A stretch of DNA of 64,000 nt, from the NCBI GenBank assembly GCA_025350465.1, contig JANXXU010000011.1, positions 1 to 64,000 of the forward strand, in the 5' to 3' direction. Shown in pieces: positions 7,502-11,811 of this stretch. Under the pieces are notes generated by a model. That model was not told the origin of the DNA and searched no databases. It saw nothing but the letters and a program-made list of their open reading frames with translations. The translations under genes were made by a program, and so were the position numbers. How positions within the stretch are numbered: position 1 is the first letter of the stretch; the number at the start of each line of letters is the position of its first letter. This DNA comes from Alphaproteobacteria bacterium (GTDB taxonomy: Bacteria > Pseudomonadota > Alphaproteobacteria > Micropepsales > Micropepsaceae).

Positions 7502-8167
7502 TTAGATCGAGACCAGGGTCTCGGATTTCTGGGTTTCTTGGTCTTTACGCGGGCGCTCGATTCCGGCGCCGCCGTCGTCGAGACCGTTCAGCAGCAAGTG
7601 GACGACGCCGTCCAATTCCCGCTCGAGCTTGTCGTAGGTGAGCTTCGACCAGAGTTGCGGATAGACGAATTTCATTGTCGCCGATTGGATCATTTCGGCC
7701 GTGAACACCACGTCCTCCACGACGAATTCGCCGCTCGAATTTCCCGCCGCCAAAATCTCTGTCAGCAACGCGCGCTGAAGCGCCATCTGGCGGTTCGCAT
7801 ATTGCGGCCGTTCCGCCGAAATCACGCGTGCCATCTCATAAATTTGCTTGTCGAACTCGAGCTGATTGTAGGTGATGTGCATGTGGGAGAAGAGGAAATC
7901 GCGAAGCTTTTGGCGGGCTGTTTTGCCCGCCAGCTTGACCACCTCTCGAAGCTTGGCGAGGGTAACTTCTCCGGCTGCCTGCGAGATGGCTTCCGCGATG
8001 TCGAGCTTTCCCGGGAAGTACCGGTAGAGGTTGCCCGGCGACATGCTACAATCCGCAGCAATCTCCGCCATCGTCGTCTTCGCGTAACCGTAATGCAGGA
8101 ACCGTTTTCTCGCCGCTTCTAGGATGTTTCCTCGGATAGTGTTTTTGCACAACATTTGTGCGTACAT
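7502..8167 (-). CDS. TetR-family transcriptional regulator
   Basis: 221 residues from ATG 8167. The N-terminal helix-turn-helix is typical: ILEAARKRFLHYGYAKTTM, then EIAADCSMSPGNLYRYFPGK. A helical ligand-binding domain of about 150 residues follows. The frame stays open upstream for another 540 nt, but that part overlaps gpsA antisense and is not coding. The gene is divergent from gpsA with 64 bp between starts, and the small membrane peptide lies downstream. The ligand and regulon are unknown; the adjacent peptide gene and gpsA are the obvious candidates. Confidence 0.88.
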   Translation of the reverse strand: MYAQMLCKNTIRGNILEAARKRFLHYGYAKTTMAEIAADCSMSPGNLYRYFPGKLDIAEAISQAAGEVTLAKLREVVKLAGKTARQKLRDFLFSHMHITYNQLEFDKQIYEMARVISAERPQYANRQMALQRALLTEILAAGNSSGEFVVEDVVFTAEMIQSATMKFVYPQLWSKLTYDKLERELDGVVHLLLNGLDDGGAGIERPRKDQETQKSETLVSI

Positions 8168-8231
8168 ATGACACCATCTGAGTAAATATTCAACAAAACA
8201 TTCACAGCCATCGCGGGACCGTGAAGCCGCT

Positions 8232-9227
8232 GTGTCGAATCTCAAGGGGATAAACCATGTCGGCGTCGCCGGAGCCGGCGCCTGGGGCACGGCTTTGGCT
8301 TTGGCTACCAGCCGCGCCGGCCGGCGGACGACACTCTGGGCGAGAGAGCAAGCCGTCGTCGACATGGTTAATAAAAGTCGCGAAAACAAGGCGTTTCTCG
8401 CTGGCGTTCCGCTAGCCGACGGAATCGTCGCGAGCTCCTCGCTTGCCGATCTCGCCGTCTGCGATCTCGTCCTTCTCGCCTCGCCGGCCCAACATCTAAG
8501 AGCCGCCGCGAAGGGTCTGGCAGAGCATCTTTCGCCCCACACCCCGGTCCTTATCTGCGCCAAAGGCATTGAACGCGAAACGGGCAAGCTGATGACAGAA
8601 GTGGCGACGGAAGCGGCACCCAGCCTCGACTTCGGCATGCTGTCGGGCCCGAGTTTTGCGATCGAAGTCGCGCGCGGGCTGCCCGTCGCCGTCACTCTCG
8701 CGTTCAAGGATGCCGAGCGCGCCGTGCGGCTCGCTTACGCGTTGAGTGGGCCATCGTTGCGCCCTTATGTGTCGACCGATGTCGTCGGCGTCGCCGTCGG
8801 CGGTGCGGTGAAGAACGTGCTCGCCATTGCTTGCGGTATCATCGAAGGACGTAGCTTGGGCGAAAGTGCGCGTGCCGCGCTGACCGCACGCGGATTTGCC
8901 GAAATGGTCCGCTTCGGCACGGCGCTGGGCGCAAGACCTGAAACGCTTTCGGGCCTGAGCGGTTTGGGAGATTTGATTTTGACGGCGTCGAGCCACCAGT
9001 CGCGCAACTTCTCGCTCGGCGTTCAACTGGCACATGGCGGTCGTCGCGAGGCTGACGCCCCTCTTGCCGAAGGTGCCGATACCGCAGACGCTTTGCTCGT
9101 CCGCGCACGCGCCGTCAAAGTCGAGATGCCGATCGCCGAAGCGGTTGCGGCCATCTTGCGCGGCACCATCGACGTCGACACTGCGATCCGAAGCCTTCTG
9201 GCGCGGCCGCTCAAATCGGAGGTCTAA
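8232..9227 (+). CDS. gpsA: NAD(P)-dependent glycerol-3-phosphate dehydrogenase
   Basis: Makes sn-glycerol-3-phosphate from dihydroxyacetone phosphate for phospholipid synthesis. 331 residues from a GTG start. It has the Rossmann motif GVAGAGAWGTALA, CAKGIE, the SGPSFA loop and the conserved catalytic segment GGAVKNVLAIACGI. The C-terminal helical domain includes GLSGLGDLILT. It follows tsaD on the same strand, interrupted by the oppositely oriented peptide and TetR genes. EVE-domain and Rieske genes lie downstream. Confidence 0.95.
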   Translation: MSNLKGINHVGVAGAGAWGTALALATSRAGRRTTLWAREQAVVDMVNKSRENKAFLAGVPLADGIVASSSLADLAVCDLVLLASPAQHLRAAAKGLAEHLSPHTPVLICAKGIERETGKLMTEVATEAAPSLDFGMLSGPSFAIEVARGLPVAVTLAFKDAERAVRLAYALSGPSLRPYVSTDVVGVAVGGAVKNVLAIACGIIEGRSLGESARAALTARGFAEMVRFGTALGARPETLSGLSGLGDLILTASSHQSRNFSLGVQLAHGGRREADAPLAEGADTADALLVRARAVKVEMPIAEAVAAILRGTIDVDTAIRSLLARPLKSEV

Positions 9228-9661: not shown

Positions 9662-9918
9662 GACACGCCGGCCCCGCTGCGCTCGATCAACTCGAGCCGC
9701 TGCTCGTCGAGATGCGCAACTGCGCGGGTTTGCGGGAGCGCAAGCGCGGCGCCTTCTACCGCGGCAGCAGCGGCTTCCTCCACTTCCACGAAGACCCCGA
9801 AGGTTTCTTCGCCGACGTCAAACTCAAGACCGGCGGCGACTTCAGCCGCTTCCGCGTTTCGACCTCGGCCGAACGCAAGCGCTTCCTCGCCGCCGCACGC
9901 AAGGCGGCCACCTCGTGA
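9658..9918 (+). CDS. Conserved-looking 86-residue protein of unknown function
   Basis: It starts at a GTG that overlaps the EVE stop (GTGA) and ends in another GTGA that starts the Rieske gene, so three products are translationally coupled. The central stretch reads KRGAFYRGSSGFLHFHEDP, then FFADVKL. The aromatic/His/Glu/Asp cluster could bind a metal or nucleic acid. The rest is basic. I recall short proteins with a similar FLHFHED core in other proteobacteria but know of no assigned function. A longer start at 9619 would overlap EVE and is less likely. Confidence 0.7.
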   Translation: MRHAGPAALDQLEPLLVEMRNCAGLRERKRGAFYRGSSGFLHFHEDPEGFFADVKLKTGGDFSRFRVSTSAERKRFLAAARKAATS

Positions 9919-10244
9919 GCATAATCCTCTGCCGCGTCGATGAAATCGCAGAAGGAACGGCGCGCAGCTTCGTCATCGGCGGGGGCACCGCACGCCGCGA
10001 CATCGTCGTCGCCCGCAAAGACGGCCACATCTTCGCCTATGAGAATTCCTGCCCGCACGAAGGCACGCCCCTCGAAACCTTCCCCGACAAATTCCTCAAC
10101 CAAGACGGCTCGCTCTTCGTCTGCTCGACCCACGGCGCGAGATTCCGCATCGAAGACGGTTTTTGCGTCAGCGGACCTTGTGAGGGGAAAGCGTTAATGT
10201 CCGTCGCAGTCTTGATCGAGCACGGAAGGCTCTCAGTCGAATGA
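9915..10244 (+). CDS. Rieske-type [2Fe-2S] ferredoxin-like protein
   Basis: 109 residues forming a single Rieske domain. The cluster ligands are Cys46-Pro-His48 and Cys70-Ser-Thr-His73, with the usual insertion between them. It has no membrane anchor or signal peptide, so it is cytoplasmic and probably carries electrons, or is a small subunit, for an unidentified oxygenase. No oxygenase is adjacent. The GTG start overlaps the previous stop by 4 nt, and the stop itself overlaps an ATG (ATGA at 10241) that opens only a short frame. Confidence 0.85.
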   Translation: MSIILCRVDEIAEGTARSFVIGGGTARRDIVVARKDGHIFAYENSCPHEGTPLETFPDKFLNQDGSLFVCSTHGARFRIEDGFCVSGPCEGKALMSVAVLIEHGRLSVE

Positions 10245-10287
10245 CAAGCATCGACGAACCGAGCCTGCGACGAAGCGTCGTGGTCGG

Positions 10288-11193
10288 TTGGCGGCGCTCC
10301 TAAGCGTGCTCGTGCCCGGCCTTGGTTATCTTTACGTTGGTCGGCGCGGACGTGCAGCGGTCATGCTCGGCCTCGCTCTCATAATGCCCATCTTTGCGTT
10401 TGCCGTCGCACTCGGATCATTTGCGGCCTTCGTGACGTTCCTGATTTTTTGGTGGGCGCTCTATTTCGGATCTGCAGGCAATGCATGGCTGTTGGCGGGT
10501 CGTCCTTCAGCCGATGCAAAGCGGCGCTGGTACGAATACGCTGCTTTTGTGCTTGGAGCTTTGGCTGCGCTCGGTTTCATCGAGTTCACGGTGCTTCGCG
10601 AAAACCGCGTCGGCGCGACAATGTATCATACGTATTATATGCCGAGCTGGTCGATGAAGCCGGCATTGACGGTCGGGGACCTATTCGCCGTGCGGCCGAC
10701 GAAGCCTGACGCGGAACCACGTCGCGGGCAAATCATCATATACAAAAGCCCCCATGCCGGAGACTTGCACGTCAGTCGTATCATAGCGATCGCAGGCGAT
10801 ACCATTGAGCTGAGCGGCAACGATCTAAAGATCAACGGTGCATTCGTACCCACACGAAAGCTCTGCGGTCCGATCAGTGTCTCCGAAGATGATCCCGACG
10901 GAAGTCTTTTTGAAGAGATGCTGAAACCGACCGTTCGCTATCATGTCCTTCGATCCGCGATGAGCGGAAGCGGGATGTGGCAAGATTCGATCGTTGTGCC
11001 AGCTGGACGCGTATTCATAGTGAGCGACAATCGCCCAAATGCAATCGACAGCCGGGTTTTTGGGCCACTGCCTATTGGAAATATCGTGGGCGTTCCGATT
11101 TATGTTCTTTGGTCGCGCGACTGGGGCCGCATTGGTTTGTCGCTGACTGAATCGCGACCTGATGAAGACGGGCCGCGCGCATGCGTGCGCTAA
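10288..11193 (+). CDS. Signal peptidase I-like membrane protein, catalytic Lys absent
   Basis: About 301 residues. The N-terminal half has several membrane helices (about 3-15, 22-70 and 83-102). The C-terminal half is an S26 domain: nucleophile Ser122 in MPSWSMKPAL, box D at 160-171 and box E in SDNRPNAIDSRVFGP. In box D the residue before the conserved Arg, normally the general-base Lys, is Ser163 (HVSRIIAIAGD). The start is uncertain: TTG 10288 is the only start-like codon in frame, while the expected ATG (10241, overlapping the Rieske stop) is in another frame. The gene may be frameshifted near its start. Its stop shares CTAA with doc. Confidence 0.75.
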   Translation: MAALLSVLVPGLGYLYVGRRGRAAVMLGLALIMPIFAFAVALGSFAAFVTFLIFWWALYFGSAGNAWLLAGRPSADAKRRWYEYAAFVLGALAALGFIEFTVLRENRVGATMYHTYYMPSWSMKPALTVGDLFAVRPTKPDAEPRRGQIIIYKSPHAGDLHVSRIIAIAGDTIELSGNDLKINGAFVPTRKLCGPISVSEDDPDGSLFEEMLKPTVRYHVLRSAMSGSGMWQDSIVVPAGRVFIVSDNRPNAIDSRVFGPLPIGNIVGVPIYVLWSRDWGRIGLSLTESRPDEDGPRACVR

Positions 11194-11582
11194 GATTTGA
11201 TCTTGACCGCGTGTCGTTTGAACCAATCAGCTAATTCGGCTTCGCTGACCTCGCCGGCCGCAAGGCGAAGGAACGTCGTGTATTTTTCGTCGTGTTCCGC
11301 CTCGACGCGAAAGCCGTTCAAACTCAAGAAGAGCAGTGACACGACGTAAGCCGTTCGCTTGTTGCCGTCGGAAAATGGATGATTGGACGCGATGCCGAAC
11401 GCATAGGCTGCGGCCAGATCGAACAGGGTGGGCGTTTCATAGGCGAACTTATTTTGCGGCCGCGCCAACGCCGACAGCAACGCACCTTCATCGCGCACGC
11501 CCGGCAGTCCGCCATGCTCCGCGATTTGCCGGTTGTGTATTGCAAGGACCGCTTCGTCCAACACCCAGATCGGCTCGGCCAT
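11190..11582 (-). CDS. doc: Doc-type toxin (Fic superfamily)
   Basis: 130 residues. The Fic signature HPFSDGNKRTA is intact, as is the N-terminal helix with HNRQIAEHGG typical of Doc. Doc proteins phosphorylate EF-Tu and stop translation. The gene starts 4 nt after the AbrB-type antitoxin, in the standard antitoxin-first order. Phd is the classical partner of Doc; here the partner is a SpoVT/AbrB-fold protein instead. The complete active-site motif suggests a functional toxin. Confidence 0.92.
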   Translation of the reverse strand: MAEPIWVLDEAVLAIHNRQIAEHGGLPGVRDEGALLSALARPQNKFAYETPTLFDLAAAYAFGIASNHPFSDGNKRTAYVVSLLFLSLNGFRVEAEHDEKYTTFLRLAAGEVSEAELADWFKRHAVKIKS

Positions 11583-11586
11583 GTGG

Positions 11587-11811
11587 CTACTTCGCGAGGG
11601 CCTTCAGCACATCACGATCCTCGCGCATTATTTTTTCGGCCGCGCCCAGTTGCTCCGCCACGTCCTTGTTGTACGGCGTCAGCAAAAATCCATCGGCGAT
11701 TTCGGTCAGGTAAATCGTATCGCCCTTTTGGACGCGCAATTTCTCCAGTGCGGCCTTTGGTAAAACAACGCCTGTCGAGCTTCCAATCGTTGTGAGTTTC
11801 AATGGGATCAT
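11587..11811 (-). CDS. AbrB/MazE-family antitoxin
   Basis: 74 residues. The N-terminal swapped-hairpin AbrB domain is clear: KLTTIGSSTGVVLPKAALEKL, then VQKGDTIYLTE. The C-terminal 30 residues (KDVAEQLGAAEKIMREDRD) are helical and would wrap around Doc. As for other antitoxins, it probably represses its own operon together with Doc. An AT-rich inverted repeat that fits this role lies 28 nt upstream. Confidence 0.88.
   Translation of the reverse strand: MIPLKLTTIGSSTGVVLPKAALEKLRVQKGDTIYLTEIADGFLLTPYNKDVAEQLGAAEKIMREDRDVLKALAK

What the first reader, a model, noticed from the sequence alone, without database searches (positions are those of the whole stretch)
10288..11193. Signal peptidase-like protein with Ser in place of the catalytic Lys
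Bacterial type I signal peptidases use a Ser/Lys dyad. The Ser (122) is present, boxes D and E are recognisable, but the Lys position reads Ser163 (HVSRIIAIAGD). ER-type enzymes use His there, which is also absent. The protein may be a pseudoenzyme or use another base. The large N-terminal membrane domain is also unlike LepB.
Basis: partly seen in the sequence, partly recalled or inferred. Interest (0 to 1): 0.55.

Follow-up and report, generated by a model that had tools for sequence, protein, structure and literature searches.

The report
Signal peptidase-like protein missing catalytic lysine
Besides three normal signal peptidases, this bacterium carries a fourth membrane-anchored relative that keeps the enzyme's shape but has lost its catalytic lysine and residues around it, so it probably binds exported proteins without cutting them; similar losses turned up in several relatives of the same build.

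Summary
ORF 10288-11193 (+) encodes a 301-aa S26 (signal peptidase I) homologue with the nucleophile Ser122 but Ser163 at the general-base position. Two residues that make room for, or stabilise, that lysine in E. coli LepB are also changed (Gly272->Ser246, Ser278->Ala252). In a control of 141 other S26 genes, 140 keep Lys and all 141 keep Gly272 and Ser278. The genome has three Ser/Lys LepBs. The predicted fold over residues 109-289 matches LepB (Z 20.4). The only other homologue found in the genus lacks both residues (Ala/His). The protein belongs to a patchy family with a multi-helix N-terminal membrane domain; 10 of the 29 members tabulated lack the lysine (partly biased sampling), not as one clade. 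A sequencing error does not explain this. Best reading: a membrane-anchored pseudopeptidase, in anatomy like streptococcal SipA. Non-cleaving peptide binding is inferred; no partner was found. Dyad-less homologues are known (SipA, SpsA), so this is a new variant of a known kind; repeated Lys loss, with His at three places on the tree, is the more interesting part. Caveats: TTG start without in-frame ATG, long branches, not found in 9 of 11 genomes of the genus, no activity data.

The parts
10288..11193 (+). S26 signal peptidase-like protein, 301 aa, TTG start, catalytic Lys position occupied by Ser
10288..10617 (+). N-terminal membrane domain (aa 1-110, three long predicted helices; weak, sub-cut-off DUF6677 match)
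10651..10653 (+). codon of Ser122, position of the LepB nucleophile Ser90
10768..10770 (+). codon of His161, position of LepB Tyr143; the candidate substitute base
10774..10776 (+). codon AGT of Ser163, position of the LepB general base Lys145
11023..11025 (+). codon of Ser246, position of LepB Gly272
11041..11043 (+). codon of Ala252, position of LepB Ser278
10241..10303 (+). out-of-frame ATG ORF of 20 codons overlapping the Rieske stop; possible original start frame, or chance
9915..10244 (+). Rieske [2Fe-2S] protein, upstream neighbour
11190..11582 (-). Fic/Doc protein, tail-to-tail neighbour (ORFs overlap by 4 bases)
11587..11811 (-). MazE-type antitoxin domain, upstream of the Fic gene on the same strand

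Best explanation
The protein is a membrane-anchored pseudopeptidase derived from type I signal peptidase. Shown by sequence and model: the S26 fold is kept; the nucleophile serine is present; the general-base lysine is gone, and so are two residues that accommodate or stabilise it (Gly272, Ser278); positions that line the signal-peptide S1 pocket in LepB (Pro87, Ser88, Met91, Leu95) are kept. Inferred: the protein does not cut signal peptides. It sits in the inner membrane with the beta domain in the periplasm and binds signal peptides or hydrophobic segments of exported proteins in the retained groove, as a holding factor or as a modulator of the three Ser/Lys LepBs, in the way SipA serves pilus assembly without proteolysis. 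The client is not known.
For: Lys145->Ser163, Gly272->Ser246 and Ser278->Ala252 occur together. PMC4049620 section 8 says that any side chain at Gly272 would clash with Lys145 and that Ser278 is involved in stabilising Lys145; SipA has changed the same three positions (and the nucleophile) and shows no detectable peptidase activity. PMC2913515 (passages): Ser278 is necessary for optimal LepB activity. Control genes keep Lys in 140 of 141. The only other homologue found in the genus (G007, 31-35% identity) has Ala for Ser90 and His for Lys145, so neither half of the dyad is preserved between the two. Both models keep the LepB fold: window Z 20.4, rmsd 2.4, 175 aligned to 1b12_D; homologue Z 20.1, rmsd 1.9, 163 aligned to 1t7d_A. 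Three LepBs with Ser and Lys are in the same genome. Pocket residues named in PMC2259416 (passages) are kept at Pro119, Ser120, Met123 and Leu127. Both genes are open over about 300 codons, which suggests selection on the fold.
Against: No activity, binding or expression data. Ser122 is still present, which a pure binding protein would not need. Both models were built with many LepBs in the alignment, so a LepB-like fold was to be expected, and side-chain geometry was not measured. LepB Gly89 is Trp121 here and Tyr143 is His161, so the pocket is not unchanged. No neighbour in common suggests a client (one search is an ORF listing without a family scan).
Confidence: 0.6

Rival explanations
1. 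A decaying gene without function: an accessory insert derived from a signal peptidase that has lost its purpose and drifts.
For: The membrane domain was found in only 2 of 11 genomes of the genus, own genome included; several are incomplete. G001 has 75 bp where the window has 1.7 kb between the two aligned blocks. No in-frame ATG; the ATG at the Rieske stop is in another frame. GC3 0.59 against 0.70-0.84 in the neighbours. Long end branch (1.45-1.52). The G007 homologue is 31% identical, while canonical LepB pairs of the two genomes reach 58% and flanking genes 64-87%.
Against: Window and G007 genes are both fully open over about 300 codons in spite of end branches of about 1.5 changes per site, and both keep the box C/D/E framework and the predicted fold. 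Lys-less members of the same build occur in other lineages.
Confidence: 0.22
2. An active serine peptidase with a substitute base: Ser122 paired with His161, two residues upstream of the usual base and on the same face of the strand.
For: Among the proteins tabulated, His at this position occurs only in the window protein and its G007 homologue; the 141 control genes have Y, F, L or W. SipA has Lys83 two residues before its base position, with its amino group 4 A from the residue in the nucleophile position (PMC4049620 passages). Asp254 is kept.
Against: The G007 homologue keeps this His but has Ala for the nucleophile. [quoted passage not shown] No distance was measured here.
Confidence: 0.12
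3. Sequencing or assembly error at the Lys codon of an ordinary signal peptidase.
For: The window comes from an assembly in 52 contigs and the start region looks irregular.
Against: AGT needs two changes to become a Lys codon; the Gly272 and Ser278 positions are altered too; the congener also lacks Lys.
Confidence: 0.02

Closest known systems
Streptococcus pyogenes SipA (dyad-less SPase-I homologue needed for pilus polymerisation; PMC4049620, section 8 and passages)
   Same: S26 fold; general base lost; Gly272 and Ser278 positions also changed; a basic residue two before the base position (Lys83 / His161); model match to 4n31_A Z 14.1, rmsd 3.1, 137 aligned
   Different: SipA has Asp for the nucleophile, one N-terminal membrane helix and a pilus role; here Ser122 is kept, the membrane domain has about three helices, and the neighbours are Rieske and Fic genes
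Staphylococcus aureus SpsA (inactive SPase paralogue; PMC12445088, passages)
   Same: Extra copy lacking conserved catalytic residues beside an active enzyme
   Different: SpsA is said to lack two conserved catalytic residues; its membrane part was not compared here
E. coli LepB / bacterial signal peptidase I (S26A)
   Same: S26 domain, Ser90, Asp280, Arg282, fold (Z 20.4 to 1b12_D)
   Different: No Lys145, no Gly272, no Ser278; different N-terminal membrane domain
ER/archaeal-type signal peptidase (S26B; Sec11, and SipW in Bacillus)
   Same: No lysine in the base position; some family relatives (L038, L068, L174) have Ser plus His there
   Different: The window protein has Ser, not His, in the base position; its best family and PDB matches are bacterial signal peptidase I

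Membership tests
Bacterial type I signal peptidase (S26A) | S26 domain with recognisable boxes B-E and LepB fold | tested here: met
   PF10502 E 2.5e-26, TIGR02227 above cut-off; fold Z 20.4
Bacterial type I signal peptidase (S26A) | Ser nucleophile in box B | tested here: met
   Ser122
Bacterial type I signal peptidase (S26A) | Lys general base in box D | tested here: not met
   Ser163; 140 of 141 control genes have Lys
Bacterial type I signal peptidase (S26A) | Gly272 and Ser278 around the Lys | tested here: not met
   Ser246 and Ala252
ER/archaeal-type signal peptidase (S26B) | His in the base position | tested here: not met
   Ser163; His161 is offset by two
SipA/SpsA-type pseudopeptidases | SPase fold without a Ser-Lys dyad | tested here: met
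SipA/SpsA-type pseudopeptidases | no peptidase activity; for SipA an assembly function | not testable with these tools
   needs purified protein and genetics
DUF6677 (N-terminal part) | Pfam PF20382 above its cut-off | tested here: not met
   20.2 bits against cut-off 24.3

The most novel reading that the evidence does not exclude
A scattered family of signal peptidase homologues with a multi-helix N-terminal membrane domain has lost the Ser-Lys dyad repeatedly. Some lineages changed Lys to His and may have converted a bacterial-type enzyme to ER-type Ser-His chemistry on their own; others (this window, its congener, a Pseudovibrio and others) became pseudopeptidases with a peptide-binding role outside Gram-positive pilus assembly.
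Probability: 0.3. Interest if true: 0.6.

Novelty: new variant of a known kind. Interest (0 to 1): 0.42.

Why it matters
The NCBIfam model would name this protein 'signal peptidase I', which is probably wrong as to activity. The dyad-less homologues in the papers I saw are Gram-positive (SipA, SpsA). A family in proteobacteria and Bacteroidota in which the catalytic base was lost or exchanged several times would allow tests of what the S26 fold does without proteolysis, and of how readily this enzyme switches its base from Lys to His.

Tried and rejected
The single-protein scan of genome contigs found no relatives; the alignment query did. Plasmid and phage collections hold no match covering 80% or more of the protein; the rows listed (15 of 113 plasmid records, 7 of 7 phage records) begin at residue 108 or later, i.e. 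they are S26-domain matches only. Literature: searches of the held PMC library on signal peptidase with pseudoenzyme, DUF6677 or TM2-domain terms gave 0 papers; broader ones listed 15 of 246, 12 of 68 and 10 of 23 papers, none of whose titles or abstract starts describes this family. Subscription journals are not held. ORFs around four other members (L197, L068, L199, L070) were listed; I saw no partner in common, but ran no family scan on them. A base supplied by Lys124 or Lys153 was judged unlikely from alignment only.

Results that limit the reading. (a) The Lys145-Ser278 association (Ser278 changed in 6 of 10 Lys-less and 0 of 19 Lys-bearing members, Fisher p 4e-4) ignores kinship; on independent pairs it is not significant. 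(b) The 10-of-29 figure is inflated: 5 of the 11 seeds of the N-domain profile were Lys-less, and three searches were centred on genomes with Lys-less members. Among the 18 non-seed members 5 are Lys-less, and 2 of those 5 (L169, L174) came from these centred searches. (c) Three of 32 deduplicated profile hits (L152, L161, L178) were dropped before the count because none of my three box patterns matched; they were not examined further. (d) G211 showed a full-length match to the A2 profile but was not fetched and is not in the table. (e) The sister relation of the window and G007 genes joins two long branches, which the tree tool flags as possibly false. (f) Many deep forks of the tree are open, so the number and place of changes are approximate.

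LepB residue numbers come from the papers cited; the box patterns used in scripts and the names 'box B' to 'box E' are recalled.

Full report
The ORF at 10288-11193 (+) is open, 301 codons from a TTG start, and is an S26 signal peptidase homologue by Pfam and NCBIfam. Against E. coli LepB, Ser90 is Ser122 and Lys145 is Ser163.

Two further LepB positions that bear on the lysine are altered: Gly272 is Ser246 and Ser278 is Ala252; Asp280 and Arg282 are kept. PMC4049620 section 8 says that a side chain at Gly272 would clash with Lys145 and that Ser278 is involved in stabilising Lys145; SipA, which shows no detectable peptidase activity, has changed the same positions. In a control of 142 other S26 ORFs (141 genes; deduplicated by exact sequence only), Lys145 is kept in 140, Ser90 in 140, and Gly272, Ser278 and Asp280 in 141. 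Many of these loci were collected by a capped scan with a box-E pattern, so box-E conservation is overstated.

The genome has four S26 matches at the search threshold. The other three (G000:C44 twice, G000:C37) have Ser and Lys, so signal peptide processing need not depend on this protein.

Relatives with the same N-terminal membrane domain are rare and scattered. With the N-domain profile (window genome included where it belongs to the group): 4 of 96 genomes of the window's family at E 1e-4, 6 of 385 of the class at E 1e-6, 7 of 398 of the phylum, 6 of 17 of family f37, 4 of 81 around the Pseudovibrio genome. With the full-length profile at E 1e-20, 2 of 195 around the Chitinophaga genome. 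From the loci held then, 49 profile hits gave 32 after removing duplicates; three without any recognisable box were dropped, leaving 29. Ten of the 29 lack the lysine; residues at Ser90/Lys145: window S/S, L006 A/H, L169 A/H, L038 S/H, L174 S/H, L068 S/H, L070 N/E, L156 V/M, L159 S/A, L160 S/F. Seeds and search centres were partly Lys-less, so the fraction is inflated; among the 18 non-seed members it is 5. On a tree made without the active-site columns the Lys/non-Lys state changes at least 5 times, and one clade of all Lys-less members is rejected (p-AU 3e-6). His in the base position stands at three separate places of the best tree, though many forks are open.

The only other homologue found in the genus is in G007 (L006), 31-35% identical, with Ala for Ser90 and His for Lys145. 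The pair is joined with support 95/89 and 95/83, but both branches are long and the tool warns about such joins. Both have His at the Tyr143 position, where the 141 control genes have Y, F, L or W.

Locus. gpsA-EVE-Rieske-creatininase-CaiB-acs was found in the 7 congener loci compared, apart from contig ends (G006 ends within creatininase, G007 begins within gpsA); a small unnamed gene after EVE was detected in 4 of the 7. Loci of G003, G005 and G009 were not compared. The S26-like gene is in the window (between Rieske and Fic) and in G007 (between EVE and the small gene), and was not detected in the other 6. G001, the closest by neighbour identity, has 75 bp between the two aligned blocks where the window has 1.7 kb with the S26-like, Fic and MazE genes. 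The gene is thus accessory, and its GC3 (0.59) is lower than that of its neighbours (0.70-0.84). It may have been gained or lost repeatedly.

Start. No ATG lies in frame upstream. An ATG overlapping the Rieske stop (10241) is in another frame and ends at 10303. Either TTG 10288 is the start or the frame was disturbed near the N terminus; this is left open.

Structure. The AlphaFold2 model of the window protein has mean pLDDT 84.1. Residues 109-289 match LepB 1b12_D with Z 20.4, rmsd 2.4, 175 aligned, and SipA 4n31_A (model 105-280) with Z 14.1, rmsd 3.1, 137 aligned. The G007 homologue (mean pLDDT 84.1) gives Z 20.1, rmsd 1.9, 163 aligned to 1t7d_A. LepBs were in both alignments, so the fold was to be expected; the models only show that nothing speaks against it. 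The N-terminal helices were barely tested by the fold comparison.

Mechanism. A pseudopeptidase is most likely: no base, altered base pocket, congener's homologue without nucleophile, fold kept, and S1-pocket residues equivalent to LepB Pro87, Ser88, Met91 and Leu95 (named in PMC2259416 passages) kept in the window protein. That it binds signal peptides or exported proteins is inferred by analogy with SipA. A drifting gene without function and a Ser122-His161 peptidase remain possible.

Novelty. Inactive signal peptidase homologues are known (SipA, PMC4049620, section 8 and passages; SpsA, PMC12445088, passages). This one differs in its membrane domain, its alphaproteobacterial host and its retained serine, and comes from a family with repeated dyad loss. 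No description of that family appeared in the listings.

Noticed in passing
L038, L174, L068: Family members with Ser in the nucleophile position and His in place of Lys (two genomes of family f37 and a Chitinophaga MAG); candidates for an ER-like Ser-His signal peptidase within a bacterial-type family.
   Followed up: partly
L170 (G1040): Two adjacent copies of the membrane-domain S26 gene in one genome, both with Ser and Lys.
   Followed up: no
window 11190-11811: Fic/Doc gene with a MazE-type antitoxin gene upstream on the minus strand. By tblastn Fic was detected at the G006 and G007 loci and not at those of G001, G002, G004, G008 and G010.
   Followed up: partly
L076: S26 protein outside the membrane-domain family that keeps Lys but has Ala in the nucleophile position.
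   Followed up: no
L030: LepB-like gene with Thr in the Lys position, but the contig has an N gap inside the gene, so it may be an assembly fault.
   Followed up: no
window 7502-8707 (-): TetR-family regulator whose mechanical ORF has about 190 residues before the TetR domain, so the true start is probably internal.
   Followed up: no
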